Origin: Mycobacterium sp. BK086
GTDB taxonomy: Bacteria > Actinomycetota > Actinomycetes > Mycobacteriales > Mycobacteriaceae
NCBI GenBank assembly: GCA_004362315.1
Contig: SNWL01000004.1
Coordinates: forward strand, 744,001 to 808,000
Direction: 5' to 3'
DNA: 64,000 nt
Shown: piece by piece, positions 56,527 through 64,000 of the stretch
Layout of the letters: each line of letters begins with the position of its first letter
How positions within the stretch are numbered: the first letter of the stretch is position 1
The notes under the pieces: generated by a model
The model's input: the letters and a program-made list of their open reading frames with translations, nothing else
Told to the model about the DNA's origin: nothing
The model's database searches: none
Translations under genes and position numbers: made by a program

Positions 56527-57597
56527 ATGACCGACCGTGACCACTATCAGCGCGACCGCGACCGGCGGCCGCCGCCGGACTATTCGGCCGGTCCGCCCAC
56601 GGAGCGGATCCCCCGTATCGAGCTGCCGATACCGCCGCAGCCCGCGCCGGTCCAGCCGCCCTATCCCCCCTTGCCGACCGCCGTGTCCGCACCGCCGCGC
56701 CCGCCGAAGCCAAAGCCGGCCCGCGGGTGGCGCCGCGGTCTTCATACCGCGACGTTCGGCCTGGTGAATCTGGGTCCCTCGCGCCAGGAGCAGCGCCAGA
56801 CGGCGATGGAAGCCATGGTGGCCGCCCCGCTGCGCGGCCACTACAAGATCGGGGTGCTGGGCAAGGGCGGGGTCGGTAAGACGACCGTCGCCGCCAGCGT
56901 CGGATGCGTGCTGGCCGAGCTGCGGCGCGGCGACCGGGTGGTGGCGGTCGACGCCGACACCGCGTTCGGCCGGCTGGGCAGCCGCATCGACCCGCGGGCC
57001 GGCGGTTCCTACTGGGAGCTGGCCAAGAACAAGAATCTGCGGTCGTTCGCCGAGGTCTTGACCCGGATGGGCAGCAACTCATCGGGGTTGTTCGTGCTGG
57101 CCGGGGACAACGGCAGCCGGCGGGGCCTTCTGGACGCGGCGATCTACCGCGAGGCCACCATGCGCCTCGACCGGCACTTCACAATTTCGATCGTCGACTG
57201 CGGATCCACGATGGACGCCCCGGTCACCCAGGAGGCGATGCGCGATATGGACGCGCTGATCGTGGTGTCCTCACCGTGGCCGGATGGCGCCTCGGCGGCC
57301 GCACAGACGATGGAATGGCTTGCCGCCCATGGCAAGACCGGGCTGATGCAGCGAACGGTGATCGTGCTCAACGACTCCGACGGGCACTCCGACAAGAAGA
57401 CCCGCGGCGTGCTCGCCGACCAGTTCCGCTCCCGTCGTCAGGCGGTGGTGGAGGTGCCGTTCGATCCGGGCCTTCGTCCCGGCGGCGTCATCAACAACAC
57501 CGGCGAGATGTCGGGGCCGACCCGGCGCGCCTTTGTCGAAGTGGCAGCCGTCATTTCGCAGTTCTTCGCGACGATCCCGCCCCGTGGACCTCGCTAG
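56527..57597 (+). CDS. ParA/MinD-like ATPase with Pro-rich N-terminus (Rv3860/EspI-like)
   Basis: 356 residues from ATG 56527. The first 75 residues are charged then proline-rich, with PPTERIPR. The ATPase domain has deviant Walker A GKGGVGKTT (about 117-125), DADTAFGRLG and IVDCGST as Walker B. Proteins of this kind flank or lie inside ESX loci (EspI, Rv3860, Rv3888c). The position next to gltB on the opposite strand is that of Rv3860, the gene bordering ESX-1. It overlaps the kinase gene by 14 bases, so the two are co-translated. Confidence 0.86.
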   Translation: MTDRDHYQRDRDRRPPPDYSAGPPTERIPRIELPIPPQPAPVQPPYPPLPTAVSAPPRPPKPKPARGWRRGLHTATFGLVNLGPSRQEQRQTAMEAMVAAPLRGHYKIGVLGKGGVGKTTVAASVGCVLAELRRGDRVVAVDADTAFGRLGSRIDPRAGGSYWELAKNKNLRSFAEVLTRMGSNSSGLFVLAGDNGSRRGLLDAAIYREATMRLDRHFTISIVDCGSTMDAPVTQEAMRDMDALIVVSSPWPDGASAAAQTMEWLAAHGKTGLMQRTVIVLNDSDGHSDKKTRGVLADQFRSRRQAVVEVPFDPGLRPGGVINNTGEMSGPTRRAFVEVAAVISQFFATIPPRGPR

Positions 57598-58312
57598 TAT
57601 CGGCGGATATTCGATCCAATCGGTGCTCGGCACCGGCGGGACGGGCACGGTCTATCTGGCCCATGGCGCTGCGGGGCCGGTGGCGCTCAAGGTGGTGACG
57701 GACGAATGTCCCCCACTGCTGGTTCATCCCCATATCGTCCCGGTGTACGAGCGCGGAACACATTGGCTGGCAATGCAATATGTTCCCGGTGGCGACGCGG
57801 ACAGTGCACTGCGGGCCGGGCAGATGTCGCCGGCGCGCGCGGTGCACATCATCGCCGGCATTGCCGAAGCCTTGGACTTCGCCCACGCTCAGGGCGTGGT
57901 GCACGGCGACGTCAAGCCGTCCAATTTCCTTCTGGGCGAGGGGGATCACGCGTTACTGACCGATTTCGGCGCTCCGCCGTTCGCGCGGAACGGAGAGGTG
58001 TTGGTATCGGCGGCCTATGCATCACCGGAGATGCTGCAGGGCAAGGACATCGACGGACTGGCCGATGTGTATTCGTTGGGCTGCTCGCTGTTTCGGCTGT
58101 TGACGGGCAAGCCGCCGTTCTTCGACGCCGGATCCCAGGCCGAGGTGGTTCAGGCGCAGCTACACCGAGAACCGCCTCCGGTCTCCCGGTTCGCGCCGTG
58201 GCTGCCTGCCGCGATCGACGACGTCATCGCCACGGCCATGGCGAAGGACCCGAGCCAGCGCTATCCGAGTGCGCGGGCGTTCGCCGACGCGGCCGCGTCA
58301 GCACTGGGTTAG
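57584..58312 (+). CDS. Compact serine/threonine protein kinase
   Basis: 242 residues from GTG 57584; no membrane helix or sensor domain. Kinase motifs: glycine loop GTGGTGTV (16-23), ATP lysine K36, HGDVKPSN (107-114, HGD in place of HRD), DFG (127-129) and a SPE in place of APE. Only 11 residues separate K36 from HPHIV, so most of the alpha-C helix, with its salt-bridge glutamate, is missing. The enzyme may be weakly active or a scaffold. Overlap with the ParA-like gene suggests the ATPase may be its partner. M. tuberculosis has no kinase here. Confidence 0.88.
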   Translation: MDLASIGGYSIQSVLGTGGTGTVYLAHGAAGPVALKVVTDECPPLLVHPHIVPVYERGTHWLAMQYVPGGDADSALRAGQMSPARAVHIIAGIAEALDFAHAQGVVHGDVKPSNFLLGEGDHALLTDFGAPPFARNGEVLVSAAYASPEMLQGKDIDGLADVYSLGCSLFRLLTGKPPFFDAGSQAEVVQAQLHREPPPVSRFAPWLPAAIDDVIATAMAKDPSQRYPSARAFADAAASALG

Positions 58313-58316
58313 GAGC

Positions 58317-59069
58317 TCAAAGCTCCAGCGGCACATGCTTTTCTGCGCATGCGACCGACACCGCGCCGAGAAGGTCCTGGGTGCGCAGCGTCTCGAGGTC
58401 CTCGACCGTCACCGACCCGCGGTCGGTGCGGTTCTGGGCGGCCACCCGGGAGTCCCGCAGCCGCTCGGCGCGCTCGACGACATTGCGGGCGAACCGGCCG
58501 TTCTGCATCACGTCTATGCCGTGGCTGCCGTCCGGTGCCAGGTAGGCCCGCAGCTTGCGGCACGCAGCATTCAAGGCTTCCTGCGCGGCCGGATCGATGA
58601 CGGTGGCGCGCGGCCCGCCGTAGCGGATCGCGATCTCGACCAGCTCGTCGGGGCTGTACGACTCGAACCGGAGCTTCCGGTTGAATCGGCCCGCCAAACC
58701 CGGGTTCACCGTGAGGAATTCGTCGACTTCCTTCTCGTACCCCGCCCCGATGAAACAGAAGTCGAACCGGTGCACTTCCAGCGCCACCAGCAGCTGGTTG
58801 ACGGCTTCCATGCCGATCATGTCCGGGCGCCCGTCGTGATGACGCTCGACCAGAGAATAGAACTCGTCCATGAAAAGAATGCGACCGAGCGAACGACTGA
58901 TCAGCTCATTGGTTTTCGGGCCTGACGACCCGATGTGCTCACCGCAGAAGTCAGCGCGTTTGACCTCGATGATCTCCGGATGCCGCACGATCCCCAACCC
59001 GGCATAGATCTTGCCGAGCGCCTCCGCCGTGGTCGTCTTACCGGTACCAGGCGGGCCGACCAGCAGCAT
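58317..59069 (-). pseudogene. eccA2: eccA2, 3' fragment (AAA+ domain only)
   Basis: 250 codons starting at the Walker A motif (MLLVGPPGTGKT) of a CbxX/CfqX-type AAA+ ATPase. Walker B is ILFMDEFYSL, and the later FNRKLRFESYSPDELVEIA and NGRFARNVVERAERLRDSR segments are typical of EccA C-terminal domains. The TPR-like N-terminal half (about 300 residues) is missing. The frame enters the eccC2 fragment out of register, so the two coding parts were joined by a deletion. No ribosome-binding site precedes the first ATG. eccA2 is normally the last gene of ESX-2. Confidence 0.85.
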
Positions 59070-61632
59070 CCATCTCGGCGTCGATCACGTGCACGCGCTG
59101 GGCGTGATCCTCGGGGAAGTCCTCGATCCCGACAGGAAAGACCAGCCCGGGGTTCTGGCCGTAATCCACCCACCACGGCTTGCCCCGCCAGCGTTGCACC
59201 AGGGCATCGGCGGTCTCGCCGACTTCCAGTGGTGGCAGCCAGATCTGGTGCGGTGCCCGGGCCGGATGTGAGACCAGCGATTCCCGGATGACGTCGAGCA
59301 GCTTCTTCTTCTTGAAACCGTCTGCGTGATAGAGGAATTCGTCGGGCTCGTCGGGTGCGTCAGCCGCAGCCAGCGCCGCGTTGTCCTCGACGGACAGCGG
59401 TTGGTACTCCCAGGTCAGCGGGCGCGGCTGTGTGAAGCTGACGTCCACCGTGGTGTCGGTGTTCACCACACGCTTGGGCACGACGAACGGCGCCGAGACG
59501 TAGAAGCAGCGGAACTGTTCGAGCTCGCGGGGGCCGACCTTGAGTAGGCCGTAACCGGCTTCTTTGGAGGGCAGGTGCAGCGCGGCGTCGCTGCCGATGA
59601 CATCGCGGGAGTCCTCGGCGGTCTCCGCACGCAGCGCGACCCGGAAGGCGATGTTGCTCTTGGCCTTGCTCAGCGACGACAGGTCCAGCCGCTGGCCGCC
59701 GAGGGTGAAGAAGACGTTACAGCCACGGCCTTCCTGCCCGATGTGAATGACCAGGTCGATCCACTCCGGGTGGTTGTGGAACAGCTCGAGGTACTCGTCG
59801 ATGATGACCAGCAGGATCGGAACCGGCTCGAGATCACGCCCGGCCAGCCGCATCTCTTCGTACTCGTTCGCGTCACGAGCACCCGCGTCCTTGAAAAGCC
59901 GGTAACGCCTGGCGATCTCGCCATCGATGGCCTTGCGCATCCGCTCGGCGAGGTGCCTGTCGTCCTTGCCGAGGTTCGACAGCGAGCCCGCCACATGGGG
60001 CAACCCCTCGAGATCCTGGGCGGCGGACTCGAACTTCATGTCGACGAAGATCACGTTGAACGTTTCCGGGGAATGGGTCAGCGCGATCCCGTTGCACAGC
60101 GAAAGGAAGTACTCCGACTTGCCCGAACCCGAGGTCCCGATCACCACCGAGTGGAAACCGAAGCCACCGAAGTCCTTGGCGCGCAACACGATGTACTGAA
60201 GCTCTCCGCCGGGCTTGATGCCGACCGGTACCACGGCCCACTTCGGGTCGCCCCGGCCTCGGCTCTCCGCCCACAACCGGTCGACGTCAAGCTGGCGCGG
60301 ATCGTTGATTCCCAACGCCCGCAGCAGCTCTCCGCCCTGGCTGTCGGTCTCGGACAATTCGCCCGCGGTCATCGGCGACCACCGGGCCAGTGCCCGGGCA
60401 TAGCGGTCGGCGGTGCTCTCGGCGAGCATGTCGGCAACAGCGTAGAAGGCCCCGCGGTGCCTGAGCCTGCCCTCCTGCAGCGTGAAACGCTCGTCCTCGT
60501 CGGAGAAACCGACCCCCACACCGGGGCGGGACGCCAAGCGCAGCACAGTGATTCCGGCCATCCCTTTCTGACCGGTGATGCCTTCCCACTGTTCGGGGGT
60601 GCCGACGTTGTCGTCGACGATCACCCAGTGCGGGCCCAGCGCGCTACCGGACGCCGCCTCCATGGGAGAGAGCATGGTGGTGGGGCTGGATCCGCTCGGC
60701 GGGGTCCACGGACCGCGCCCCTTGCGGTGGAGCTCCGAATCCAGCGCGTCCTCGAGTTCGGTCGGCGAGGTGAACACCAGACGCCGAAGCCCGCAGGCAT
60801 CGAACATCTCGTCGTGCTGGTTGTGCGGCAACCACACCAGCCACGACCACAATTCGGGGTGCCGGGTGACCACCATGAGCTTCATGTCGTTAGGGCTGTG
60901 ATAGACGGCCAGCGAGGACAGCACCGCTCGCATGAACGAGTGCAGCTCGTCGGCATCGTCCCCGACGAAGCTGAATCCCGGCCGCGAACGCAGGCTCAGC
61001 ACCTTGCCGATCCCGCGAATCTTGCTCTGCTCCAAGATGAAATCCCGCAGCGCCCGTCCGGTCACCGGTTCCAGCTCTTCACCGACGGGCACTTCCGGCC
61101 ACTGCAAGGACACCGCGGAGTCGGCGGCCGACTGCACACCGATGCCCAGGCGCACATCGAGGAAGTCGGCGTCGGCGGGCCGGCGCTCCCACATCCGGGG
61201 GCCACCGATCACCGTGTCGAGCTCTTGCGGGTCGCCGTGCACGAACAGCTGGCTGTGACGCTGGTCCTGGGCGGCGCGCTGGACCTCGTCGCGGTCGTCG
61301 TCAAGCTGGCGCAAGTAGATTCGGCGTTGCTTCTCCTGCTCACCCCAGCTGATGCGACGACCGCGACCCATGCGCCCGCTGAACATCAGTGCCGCGAAAC
61401 CGACCAGGCCGATCATCGGGAAGAACCCGGACTGCAATGACCGGACGCCGGAGGTGTACATCACCACGAGCGTGCCGATGATCCCCACCAGCAGCGCAGG
61501 CAGCGCGATCATCAGCAGGATGTTGCGCGGCTCCCGTTCAGGCAGTGCCAGCGGCGGTGCGACCGCCACCCGCGCCGGCGGCACGCTCGGCGCAGGCTTG
61601 CGTCCGCCACGAACGAATCCCCTTTTCGACAC
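59038..61632 (-). pseudogene. eccC2: eccC2, 5' part (membrane and first ATPase domain)
   Basis: 864 codons from GTG 61632, against roughly 1,390 in a complete EccC2. Two N-terminal membrane helices (about 33-75), then the first FtsK/SpoIIIE-type ATPase: GTSGSGKSEYF (about 497) and LLVIIDEYLELF (about 610). The text reads as EccC through VGIEDFPEDHAQRVHVIDAEMD and then runs 9 codons in the wrong frame of eccA2 to a stop. ATPase domains 2 and 3, with the substrate-binding pocket for EsxB-type proteins, are lost. It cannot act as a normal ESX motor. Confidence 0.88.
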
Positions 61633-61634
61633 CG

Positions 61635-63131
61635 CTACCCTCCCGCATTCTGTTGGCCGGGGGCGGCCACCTGGGCCACCGCCCCGCCGGGATCGATGGT
61701 GTCGCGCGCCAACAGCGCGGTGGCCCGGTTGATCGCGGGGCCCGCGGCGAAGGTCCGCAAGATGGGCCACGGCGCCTGCACGGCCCGGCGCGGGTCGACA
61801 CCCAATGCCTGCAAGGTGCTCTGGTCCCATTCGACGCCGTACCGAACCCCTTGGGGCGACACCCAGTACAGCGATTCGCGGGTGTCCGAGCTGATCGCCC
61901 CGCTGGTGGATGCGACGAAGTTCGCGGCACCCGGCAACATCAGGGTCTGGTTGGCCTCGACGGAGTCGGGGTCGCGGCTATCGCGGACCAGCTTCACGAT
62001 GTGTGAGTCCATGCTCTCCGGTGTCGGCAGTCCGCGACCGGTGAAGAACGTCACCGCGGCCTGGCGGTCGGTGGTCTGCTTCTGCCAGCCCACGCATGTC
62101 ACCGGATTGGCATCGGTATCAACGAAATCCAGCTTGCCGGTGGGATAGAAGTCGACATTGAGCACCGACACCTCGGGAATGTCGACGAGCTTGTCCGGTG
62201 AGACCAGCTGCGGGGTCGTCGAACCTTGGCTGTTCGCAGTGCGCAGCAGGTCGGCGACGAAGCCGGTGATCTTCTGCACGCCGTTGGGCAGCAACGCGTA
62301 GAAGCCGCTGACCACGCCGTTGGAGTCCTTGGTCTCCAGCACGGTGCCGACCACCGAGCCTGCCAGCAGGCGCGACGGAGTGCCCGCTTCCGGAATGACC
62401 GGTACCACAAGGGGTTCCGTGGCGGGCATGGCGTCGAACAGAGCGTTCGAGACGTCGATGGGCCGGGTCGCGCCCGGGTCGAGGCCGAGGTTGAAGGTGA
62501 CCGAACGATCGGCCGGGTCGATCTGGGTCCGCTGACCGTTCCAGATCAGGTAGGTGCCGGTGCCGTGGGTGGCCAGGACCGCCTGGGTCGGGCGCAACGG
62601 CTGTGCGCGACCGCCGGCGGAAAGCTGGCCGGCGATCGCCGTCACCAACGGCAGCTGTCCGCCGCCCCGGGTCGGGGCGGTGTCGCAGACCGACCACGCC
62701 GAAACGGGATTGGCCGAGACGGTCAGGTCGTCGGGTACGCCGGGGATCCCGATCATCGGCCCGGTCGGGTACTTCGCGATCTCACCGGCATTGACCCAGG
62801 TGGGCGTCGACGCGCTGCCCGTCGCCAGACGCGCCGACGTCAGGTTGAGGGCCGGGTACAGCCGGCCATCGATCTTCGCGTAGAGCGCACCGGTGTCGCG
62901 GTTGCCGATGATGTTCGACTGGCCCACCAGACCGGCGGGCTTCATGAAATGCAGGAGGGCCATCCACCCGCAGCCGATCAGGACGAACACGATCGACAAC
63001 GCGACGGCGGCCTGCTGCTTGCGATCGTCGTGCTTCATCCGCACGGAGAAGCGGGTGATCGCTGCCCGAAGGCGCCGGTTGTAGAAGAGGTGGCCGGAGT
63101 TCTGGTCCCGGTTGGACAGATTCAGCGGCAC
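61635..63131 (-). CDS. eccB2: ESX-2 core component EccB2
   Basis: 498 residues from GTG 63131, the length of EccB2 (Rv3895c, about 495). A cytosolic N-tail, one membrane helix (about 40-61, ALSIVFVLIGCGWMALLHFM) and a large extracytoplasmic domain with the repeated EccB pattern (GTYLIWNGQRTQID, FYALLPNGVQKI, GVRYGVEWDQSTLQALGVD). Cysteine pair at SVCDT and VTCVGW. It appears intact, but no EccD, MycP or EccE remains in the window to form a pore with it. eccC2 starts two bases after its stop. Confidence 0.92.
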   Translation of the reverse strand: MPLNLSNRDQNSGHLFYNRRLRAAITRFSVRMKHDDRKQQAAVALSIVFVLIGCGWMALLHFMKPAGLVGQSNIIGNRDTGALYAKIDGRLYPALNLTSARLATGSASTPTWVNAGEIAKYPTGPMIGIPGVPDDLTVSANPVSAWSVCDTAPTRGGGQLPLVTAIAGQLSAGGRAQPLRPTQAVLATHGTGTYLIWNGQRTQIDPADRSVTFNLGLDPGATRPIDVSNALFDAMPATEPLVVPVIPEAGTPSRLLAGSVVGTVLETKDSNGVVSGFYALLPNGVQKITGFVADLLRTANSQGSTTPQLVSPDKLVDIPEVSVLNVDFYPTGKLDFVDTDANPVTCVGWQKQTTDRQAAVTFFTGRGLPTPESMDSHIVKLVRDSRDPDSVEANQTLMLPGAANFVASTSGAISSDTRESLYWVSPQGVRYGVEWDQSTLQALGVDPRRAVQAPWPILRTFAAGPAINRATALLARDTIDPGGAVAQVAAPGQQNAGG

Positions 63132-63135
63132 CAGG

Positions 63136-63453
63136 TCACCTCAACCCGCCGCCGTAGCGGGCCTGATTGTCGGTCTCGGCCTCCTCGCGCAGCGCCGTGA
63201 ACGCCAGGTTCAGCCGATCGCTCAGCTCCCCATGGCTGTAGTCGGTCACGACCGCGGGGTGCAACGTGAGGTCGATGAGTTTGCCGTCAGAGTTTGCCAC
63301 CGCGGTTATGTCCCCCAGGTCGACGCTGTAGGTGATGGTCTCGGCCTGCGCGACGAGCGCCTCCCAACGCTGCGCAGCTTCGCTCAGTTCGCGTAAGACC
63401 GCATCGACGAGATCCCTGTCGCTAAGCTCGCGATCACTGCCGGATCCCGCCAC
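63136..63453 (-). CDS. YbaB/EspL-like small protein of the ESX locus
   Basis: 105 residues from GTG 63453. Helix, then a three-strand sheet (TITYSVDLGDITAVANSDGKLIDLTLHP), then a helix: the YbaB/EbfC pattern, also found in EspL-type proteins of ESX loci. Stop 4 bases before eccB2. In other ESX clusters such proteins partner the ATPase or EspG; here it is retained with eccB2. Confidence 0.75.
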   Translation of the reverse strand: MAGSGSDRELSDRDLVDAVLRELSEAAQRWEALVAQAETITYSVDLGDITAVANSDGKLIDLTLHPAVVTDYSHGELSDRLNLAFTALREEAETDNQARYGGGLR

Positions 63454-63557
63454 TCGACCAGTATGTCGAGCGTCGCTACCTGCGTCAATTCACCTTTGTA
63501 CGGACCACCGTCATCAGCACCGGAAATTGCCCCAGCAACCTCCGACCATAGGTCGAG

Positions 63558-64000
63558 TTACGGCGCGCTGCCCCACTGGCTCGGCAACGGGGCGTTGAGC
63601 GCCTCGAACCAGGCGAAGTGATAATTGGCGGACAGCTCGTCTCCGACCGCGATCGCCTCGGTGGCAGCCAGTAACAGGCAGTTGCTCAGCAGCGCTGAAT
63701 CGACATCGGGGTACTGGGCCATCAACTGATAGCGCGCGGTGTCGGAATGCACACGCAGGACATCCACTTCGGCGTCGAGCACCCCGGTGCGCGCCGCACC
63801 GGCCTTGGCCAAGGTGTGCACCATCCTCGGCAGTCCGTCGCGCCAGTGGGTGGCCTCGACCAGCTTCCATCCGAGATCGTCGACGCGAGGCAGTTCCCGG
63901 GCGGTCTGCGATGTCCTCGGCGCCTCGTTGCGGCCCCCACCGAACGGGTCGCCCGGGTGGTAGGACGCCGACCGCACGACATCGCCGAGCAGGTCGCTGA
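63558..64000 (-). CDS. Hypothetical protein, C-terminal part (start beyond window)
   Basis: The open frame runs into the window edge (SDLLGDVVRSASYHPGDPFGGG), so this is the C-terminal 146 residues of a longer protein. Helical, no membrane segment, ending in FEALNAPLPSQWGSAP. By order it lies where Rv3896c-Rv3899c flank ESX-2 in M. tuberculosis. No domain recognised. A 104-base gap to the YbaB-like gene holds the palindrome CGACCATAGGTCG at 63543-63555. Confidence 0.6.
   Translation of the reverse strand, partial: SDLLGDVVRSASYHPGDPFGGGRNEAPRTSQTARELPRVDDLGWKLVEATHWRDGLPRMVHTLAKAGAARTGVLDAEVDVLRVHSDTARYQLMAQYPDVDSALLSNCLLLAATEAIAVGDELSANYHFAWFEALNAPLPSQWGSAP

What the first reader, a model, noticed from the sequence alone, without database searches (positions are those of the whole stretch)
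58317..63453. Collapsed ESX-2 locus: eccC2 joined out of frame to eccA2
eccB2 and a YbaB-like gene are intact. eccC2 ends after ATPase 1 and its DNA runs straight into the Walker A motif of eccA2, in a different frame. Known ESX-2 order is eccB2-eccC2-PE-PPE-esxD-esxC-espG2-(MinD-like)-eccD2-mycP2-eccE2-eccA2, so one deletion with ends inside eccC2 and eccA2 explains the join. ESX-1, normally next to it, is absent too. The junction near 59070 (AE-MD / ML-LVGPPGTGKT) gives a datable scar.
Basis: partly seen in the sequence, partly recalled or inferred. Interest (0 to 1): 0.85.

Follow-up and report, generated by a model that had tools for sequence, protein, structure and literature searches.

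The report
Cut-down ESX-2 operon, still conserved
One old deletion cut a mycobacterial secretion-system gene cluster down to four genes, two of them truncated, yet the leftover genes are still guarded by natural selection, so they are probably a smaller working machine and not wreckage.

Summary
eccC2 stops after ATPase 1 and its DNA runs, out of frame, into the AAA+ half of eccA2, joined at base 59069 with one shared base. In five close relatives with both halves on one contig, 11.6-11.7 kb lies between them.

"Collapse" is not supported. All that separates the two arose after the deletion: 13.3% DNA difference over the operon, 14% within 60 bases of the join, no indel, no stop. Post-deletion dN/dS is 0.029 (eccA), 0.023 (eccC), 0.025 (eccB), close to intact relatives; dN/dS = 1 is rejected. 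The remnant evolves more slowly than the complete ESX-3 of the same two genomes. Its own EccD, EccE and MycP are gone, yet EccB2's EccD-docking end is unchanged at 42 of 42 residues. A third species, G004, independently fused eccC2 in frame to eccA2.

Best reading: a retained EccB2-EccC2(NBD1)-EccA2(AAA+) module, probably docking on another ESX system's EccD; the docking is inferred.

The parts
63136..63453 (-). DUF2710 (YbaB-like) gene, first gene of the four-gene unit, intact; ends 4 bp before eccB2
   Evidence: Pfam PF10921 8e-50; present in G172, G004 and intact relatives
61635..63131 (-). eccB2, intact, 498 aa
   Evidence: TIGR03919 9.2e-136; residues 1-42 identical in 11 of 11 genomes compared; post-deletion dN/dS 0.025
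59038..61632 (-). eccC2 truncated after ATPase 1 (NBD1): membrane part, stalk/DUF, NBD1 and the following linker, then about 10 out-of-frame residues; 864 aa from the likely GTG start
   Evidence: TIGR03924 1.5e-202; only positions 1-75 of 564 of EccCb; post-deletion dN/dS 0.023
58317..59069 (-). eccA2 fragment, 250 aa: AAA+ core from the Met before Walker A to the natural stop
   Evidence: TIGR03922 positions 315-553 of 557; PDB 9lur EccA1 aligns to residues 1-238; post-deletion dN/dS 0.029
59068..59070 (-). deletion join; base 59069 (A) is shared by both sides; about 11.6 kb lost
59038..59069 (-). 32-base overlap of the eccC2 and eccA2 frames; the eccA-frame residues are unchanged between this genome and G172 while the eccC-frame tail residues differ

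Best explanation
In the common ancestor of this genome and G172 a single deletion of about 11.6 kb removed the 3' third of eccC2, PE/PPE, the esx pair, espG2, the MinD-like gene, eccD2, mycP2, eccE2 and the 5' half of eccA2. What was left became a compact four-gene unit: DUF2710, eccB2, eccC2 with its membrane part, stalk and ATPase 1 (NBD1) only, and the AAA+ core of eccA2, which now starts at a Met that had been internal. Shown: the deletion, that two species share it, and that the products of the remaining genes have been kept by strong purifying selection since. Inferred: the products still assemble. EccB2 and EccC2 most likely dock through their unchanged EccD-facing parts on an EccD of another ESX system; ESX-3 is the only ESX-type locus with a normally conserved EccD that I found in both genomes. 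There they would act as an accessory or alternative motor subunit, with NBD1 driven by ATP, without the substrate-reading NBD2 and NBD3, and with the small AAA+ protein as a partner ATPase. My odds: about 0.9 that the module is retained and functional, about 0.4 for docking on another ESX system as its mode of action.
For: Identical join in G172, with differences starting 10 bases before and 5 bases after it and 17 differences in the 120 bases around it, so the join was not transferred recently. eccB, eccC and gene sets containing both group the two genomes: UFBoot 100 (eccB), 100 (eccB+eccC), 99 (all three), 67 (eccC). Codon branch model on terminal branches: eccA 0.029 against background 0.021, eccB 0.025 against 0.039, eccC 0.023 against 0.023; dN/dS = 1 costs 2dlnL of 269, 454 and 788. 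No domain shows significant relaxation, including the linker after NBD1. No indel in 5,284 bases and no stop, where a rough neutral estimate expects 18, 48 and 21 stop mutations. Of 222 EccA sites invariant in 7 intact genomes, 0 changed here and 3 in G172. Between the same two genomes at similar dS, ESX-3 eccB3, eccC3 and eccD3 have dN/dS 0.123, 0.083, 0.095 against 0.056 and 0.042 for eccB2 and eccC2. EccB2 residues 1-42 are identical in 11 of 11 genomes; in ESX-5 that end sits in an EccD pocket, and the EccC stalk/DUF binds EccD (PMC8131196, passages).
Against: No protein, transcript or interaction was measured. In ESX-5, loss of EccD makes EccC undetectable and blocks assembly (PMC10597459, passages), and a module without its own EccD might be dead. 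Hardly any change maps to the stem after the deletion (1 shared change at 747 conserved EccC sites, 2 at 382 EccB sites, none at 222 EccA sites), so nothing shows adaptation to a new partner. Raw counts in ATPase 1 are higher than in intact pairs (14 against 1-7 nonsynonymous differences), and the branch model gives 0.0147 against 0.0075, not significant (2dl 2.73). The eccA fragment alone does not group the two genomes, though grouping them is not rejected (AU p 0.295). Only two genomes carry it, so all post-deletion evidence rests on two branches. The EccA fragment lacks about 57 residues that the solved EccA1 AAA+ construct has before this point.
Confidence: 0.55

Rival explanations
1. The remnant is a stand-alone machine: EccB2, EccC2-NBD1 and the AAA+ protein work together in the membrane without any EccD, in a job that the eccB2-eccC2 pair already had before the deletion.
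For: Constraint is the same before and after loss of the rest and there is no sign of adaptation to a new partner. In M. tuberculosis the eccB5-eccC5 operon is essential while transposon insertions in eccA5 or eccD5 were obtained (PMC3524121, passages). In some relatives eccC2 and eccA2 lie about 75 kb apart (e.g. G132, G164; coordinates), and one paper notes transposition of EccB2 and EccC2 in the M. avium complex (PMC4791881, passages), so the pair is separable.
Against: EccD is the scaffold in ESX-5 and EccC5 is undetectable without it (PMC10597459, passages); the EccD-facing end of EccB2 is perfectly kept, which a machine without EccD would not need.
Confidence: 0.3
2. Non-functional wreckage in slow decay.
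For: Most of the machine, its substrates and its chaperone gene are gone from the locus. The genome-wide searches find no ESX-2-type EccD, EccE or MycP in G172.
Against: dN/dS of 0.02-0.03 on the post-deletion branches, dN/dS = 1 rejected; no stop, no indel at 13.3% divergence. A real decaying ESX-2 looks different: G250 has a frame change in eccB2 and 2 stops in eccC2, and eccC4 of G172 has a stop with dN/dS about 0.2.
Confidence: 0.05
3. Borrowed constraint: recombination with intact relatives keeps overwriting the two sides of the join, so the low dN/dS reflects selection in the donors.
For: The eccA fragment of G172 groups with other genomes in its own tree, with weak support (UFBoot 69, 55).
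Against: Differences reach to 10 and 5 bases from the join, so tracts would have to end there on both sides; eccB and eccB+eccC trees group the two genomes with full support; grouping is not rejected for eccA (AU p 0.295); dS of eccB2 and eccC2 (0.56, 0.62) equals that of ESX-3 genes eccB3, eccC3, eccD3 between the same genomes (0.59-0.69).
Confidence: 0.05
4. Interference: the truncated subunits are kept because they poison assembly of incoming plasmid-borne ESX systems, a kind of exclusion.
For: ESX-2-type systems are common on Mycolicibacterium plasmids (PMC8190616, passages); truncated motor subunits are plausible poisons (inference).
Against: This genome itself carries a further complete-looking ESX locus on contig C8. 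No direct evidence.
Confidence: 0.05

Closest known systems
Complete ESX-2 loci (e.g. G136, G009; named relatives Mycobacterium sp. ENV421, Mycolicibacterium sp. P1-5)
   Same: DUF2710-eccB2-eccC2 order and position beside gltB in G136; 94-95% protein identity in eccC2 to the join and in the eccA2 AAA+ part
   Different: eccC2 has all three ATPase domains and about 11.6 kb of further genes precede the AAA+ part of eccA2
EccCa1 of ESX-1, with EccCb1 as a separate protein (recalled)
   Same: A membrane-bound EccC that ends after ATPase 1
   Different: No free-standing EccCb frame belongs to it: in this genome the EccCb matches lie in long EccC frames, and the one free-standing frame in G172 lies in its ESX-4 locus
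ESX-2 deletion of the M. marinum/M. ulcerans clade (PMC9241763, passages)
   Same: One shared deletion of many ESX-2 genes (11 CDS) with a partial eccA2 left
   Different: The passages do not report a retained eccB2-eccC2 pair or selection on the remnant
G004 chimera found here
   Same: Deletion from eccC2 into eccA2, with DUF2710 and eccB2 kept
   Different: Different breakpoints (about 13.3 kb against G136), in-frame fusion of EccC2 about residues 1-350 to EccA2 434-615, no Walker A of either ATPase; another branch of the tree

Membership tests
Type VII secretion system, ESX-2 | EccB of ESX-2 type | tested here: met
   TIGR03919 9.2e-136; groups with ESX-2 eccB of relatives
Type VII secretion system, ESX-2 | EccC with three ATPase domains | tested here: not met
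   EccCa complete, EccCb only 1-75 of 564
Type VII secretion system, ESX-2 | Own EccD, EccE and mycosin | tested here: not met
   None at the locus; genome searches place all hits above cut-off in other ESX loci
Type VII secretion system, ESX-2 | Own Esx pair, PE/PPE and EspG at the locus | tested here: not met
   Absent from the locus; not searched genome-wide
Type VII secretion system, ESX-2 | Secretion activity | not testable with these tools
   No experiment
EccCa/EccCb split type | A separate EccCb protein of the same system | tested here: not met
EccA (AAA+ with N-terminal TPR half) | Full-length protein above the curated cut-off | tested here: not met
   344 bits against cut-off 466.65; positions 315-553 of 557 only
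EccA (AAA+ with N-terminal TPR half) | AAA+ core with Walker A and Walker B | tested here: met
   GPPGTGKT at residue 5, FMDE at residue 66; Pfam AAA 3e-17 and AAA_lid_6 6e-10
Pseudogene remnant | Broken frames or relaxed selection since the event | tested here: not met
   Open frames in both genomes, dN/dS 0.023-0.029, dN/dS = 1 rejected

The most novel reading that the evidence does not exclude
A secretion system has been stripped by deletion to a minimal EccB-EccC(NBD1)-AAA+ membrane motor that works without any EccD, EccE, mycosin, chaperone or substrate of its own, and this role, not secretion, is what selection preserves in ESX-2 here; deletion from eccC2 into eccA2 has happened at least twice in this group.
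Probability: 0.3. Interest if true: 0.8.

Novelty: new variant of a known kind. Interest (0 to 1): 0.6.

Why it matters
The function of ESX-2 is largely open, and current models hold that a type VII system needs five membrane proteins to assemble. Here evolution has done the deletion experiment, and the remaining EccB, half an EccC and half an EccA are still under selection at least as strict as that on the complete ESX-3 of the same cells. That either means subunits of one ESX system can serve in another, or that the EccB-EccC motor has a job besides secretion. Both can be tested in two non-model environmental mycobacteria, and the in-frame chimera of G004 gives a third natural case.

Tried and rejected
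Assembly error: rejected, since the one-contig genome G172 has the same join. Two separate deletions with the same join: rejected, as the breakpoints agree to the base with one shared base and the genomes are sisters in eccB and eccB+eccC trees. Recent transfer of the join: rejected, because divergence reaches to within 10 and 5 bases of it (my notebook entry said 7, which was a miscount). Translational frameshift joining eccC2 and eccA2 into one protein: considered from the sequence only; no obvious slippery site, not tested. ESX on contig C8 as an intact second ESX-2: its EccB lies far outside the ESX-2 group and G172 has no such locus in the mycosin, EccD and EccE searches. The five paper searches listed no title that describes such a remnant; I saw listings and, for seven papers, passages only. 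PMC8593097, which gives ESX-2 a role in phagosome permeabilization in M. tuberculosis, was not used further.

Rows dropped: of 14 genomes gathered for the codon work, the branch models used 9; G167, G182, G168, G084 and M26 were left out as more distant or lacking one gene in the fetched stretch (G168 and G084 eccC, M26 eccA). One search used 7 intact genomes, searches used 8. The lists are capped at their weak end.
Full report
What is there. On the minus strand of 58317-63453 lie DUF2710, eccB2, a truncated eccC2 and the AAA+ half of eccA2. The first three follow each other with gaps of a few bases, and eccC2 and eccA2 overlap by 32 bases in different frames. The eccC2 product keeps Walker A and B of ATPase 1 and ends in about 10 out-of-frame residues; the eccA2 product keeps GPPGTGKT and FMDE. 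Both ends of the deletion lie just before the Walker A strand of an ATPase domain, ATPase 2 of EccC and the AAA+ domain of EccA; this may be chance.

The deletion. Five close relatives with both halves on one contig have 11,602-11,700 bases between them (G024, G093, G136, G098, G009; computed). A 120-base query in 396 genomes found the join itself in two, this genome (G000) and G172; the next best matches cover one side only (list sorted and capped). A draw of 397 relatives, overlapping with the former, gave the same two. A pattern for the join in the named collection of 84,980 species gave 0 hits, though own and near records may be left out. Of 80 named loci with a related eccB, 73 have eccC matching to residue 1429 or beyond of the reference; the other 7 run into a contig end (counted).

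Genes lost, from the gene list of G136 with EccD, MycP and EccE places: the C-terminal third of EccC2, a PE/PPE region, two Esx-sized genes, an EspG-sized gene, the MinD-like gene, EccD2, MycP2, EccE2 and the N-terminal half of EccA2. EspG, PE/PPE and Esx names here rest on order and size, partly recalled.

Age. G172 shares the join to the base. Between the two genomes the operon (58317-63600) differs at 705 of 5,284 positions without an indel; 17 of the 120 bases around the join differ, the nearest 10 bases before and 5 after base 59069. dS is 0.56 (eccB2), 0.62 (eccC2) and 0.89 (eccA2), while ESX-3 eccB3, eccC3 and eccD3 give 0.59-0.69 between the same genomes. So the deletion is older than the split of the two species, and all differences between them postdate it.

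Selection since. Because the deletion is shared, the terminal branches of G000 and G172 are wholly post-deletion. A codon branch model on 9 genomes gives dN/dS on these branches of 0.029 (eccA; background 0.021, 2dl 1.16), 0.025 (eccB; background 0.039, 2dl 3.88, towards tighter constraint) and 0.023 (eccC; background 0.023, 2dl 0.02); forcing 1 on them costs 2dlnL of 269, 454 and 788. By domain nothing is significantly relaxed: EccC 1-400 0.027 against 0.033, ATPase 1 0.0147 against 0.0075 (2dl 2.73), the linker after it 0.028 against 0.036, the EccA halves 0.009 against 0.004 and 0.044 against 0.032. The trend in ATPase 1 and in EccA is upward and should be watched. At sites invariant in 7 intact genomes, G000 and G172 changed 0 and 3 of 222 (EccA), 6 and 8 of 747 (EccC), 4 and 8 of 382 (EccB); single intact genomes left out in turn gave 0-5, 3-28 and 1-23. 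A rough count of expected stop mutations under neutrality is 18, 48 and 21 for eccA, eccC and eccB; none is seen.

Comparison within the same two genomes. By the simple NG86 count the remnant has dN/dS 0.042 (eccC2), 0.056 (eccB2) and 0.049 (eccA2). ESX-3 has 0.083 (eccC3), 0.123 (eccB3), 0.095 (eccD3) and 0.051 (eccA3, 251 of 622 codons); the larger ESX-4 genes have 0.20-0.37, the two small Esx-sized ones 0.10-0.12, with a stop in eccC4 of G172. The remnant is thus at least as constrained as a complete ESX system.

Phylogeny. eccB alone, eccB+eccC and all three together group G000 and G172 (UFBoot 100, 100, 99), eccC alone with 67; eccA alone does not, but grouping is not rejected (AU p 0.295).

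A second deletion. G004 joins EccC2, after about residue 350 from the GTG, in frame to EccA2 residue 434-615, just after Walker B, with GAG shared; 13.3 kb is missing against G136, and DUF2710 and eccB2 are intact. G004 groups with G136 and G093 at 100, not with G000 and G172, so this is a separate event. Since only one genome has it, selection on the chimera cannot be separated from earlier time.

How it may work. In the ESX-5 structure the N-terminal end of EccB lies in an EccD pocket, the EccC DUF binds EccD, NBD1 is the most stably bound ATPase domain, and linker 2 joins NBD1 to NBD2 (PMC8131196, passages). The truncated EccC2 stops after that linker. EccB2 residues 1-42 are identical in all 11 genomes compared, among them the three that lost eccD2 from the locus (the genome-wide EccD search covered G000 and G172, not G004). 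That fits docking on another EccD. Against it, ESX-5 without EccD loses EccC (PMC10597459, passages) and no adaptive change is visible. I hold docking on ESX-3 as the likelier mode and a stand-alone motor as the chief rival; the essential eccB5-eccC5 pair of M. tuberculosis is a precedent for a special weight of this pair (PMC3524121, passages).

Limits.

Noticed in passing
L156:12999-14828 (G004): Independent in-frame EccC2-EccA2 chimera, 609-codon frame (531 aa from the likely start), lacking Walker A of both ATPases.
   Followed up: partly
L159 (G250:C48:234000-245945): Rearranged, decaying ESX-2: eccA2 residues 1-434 run straight into DUF2710 and eccB2 in two frames; eccC2 with 2 stops. 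Residue 434 is also where the retained EccA part of G004 begins; unexplained.
   Followed up: no
G000:C8:173893-191228: A further complete-looking ESX locus (eccB to eccA, ESX-2-like order) whose EccB is far from ESX-2.
   Followed up: partly
G000:C4:597261-600485: EccC-like 1516-codon frame with no eccB hit nearby; a similar one in G176:C87.
   Followed up: no
G000:C1:1917628-1918542 and L150 (G172): ESX-4 evolves fast: shortened EccD4 match in this genome, in-frame stop in eccC4 of G172, dN/dS 0.20-0.37 for the larger genes.
   Followed up: partly
57533-58312: Ser/Thr kinase gene converging on the eccA2 fragment with 4 bases between the stops; G136 and G093 have about 2.4 kb there, in G136 with two genes; G172 lacks the kinase's C-terminal part.
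   Followed up: partly
L062, L066, L067, L070 (records named Mycolicibacterium): ESX-2-type eccB on contigs of Mycolicibacterium, beside gltB in G093 (142,888-base contig, the length of the Mycolicibacterium sp. P1-5 contig), while a survey says ESX-2 is unreported on Mycolicibacterium chromosomes (PMC8190616, passages).
   Followed up: no
G172:C1:3593807-3603175: A second ESX-3-like locus in G172, with similar ones in G176 and G156.
   Followed up: no
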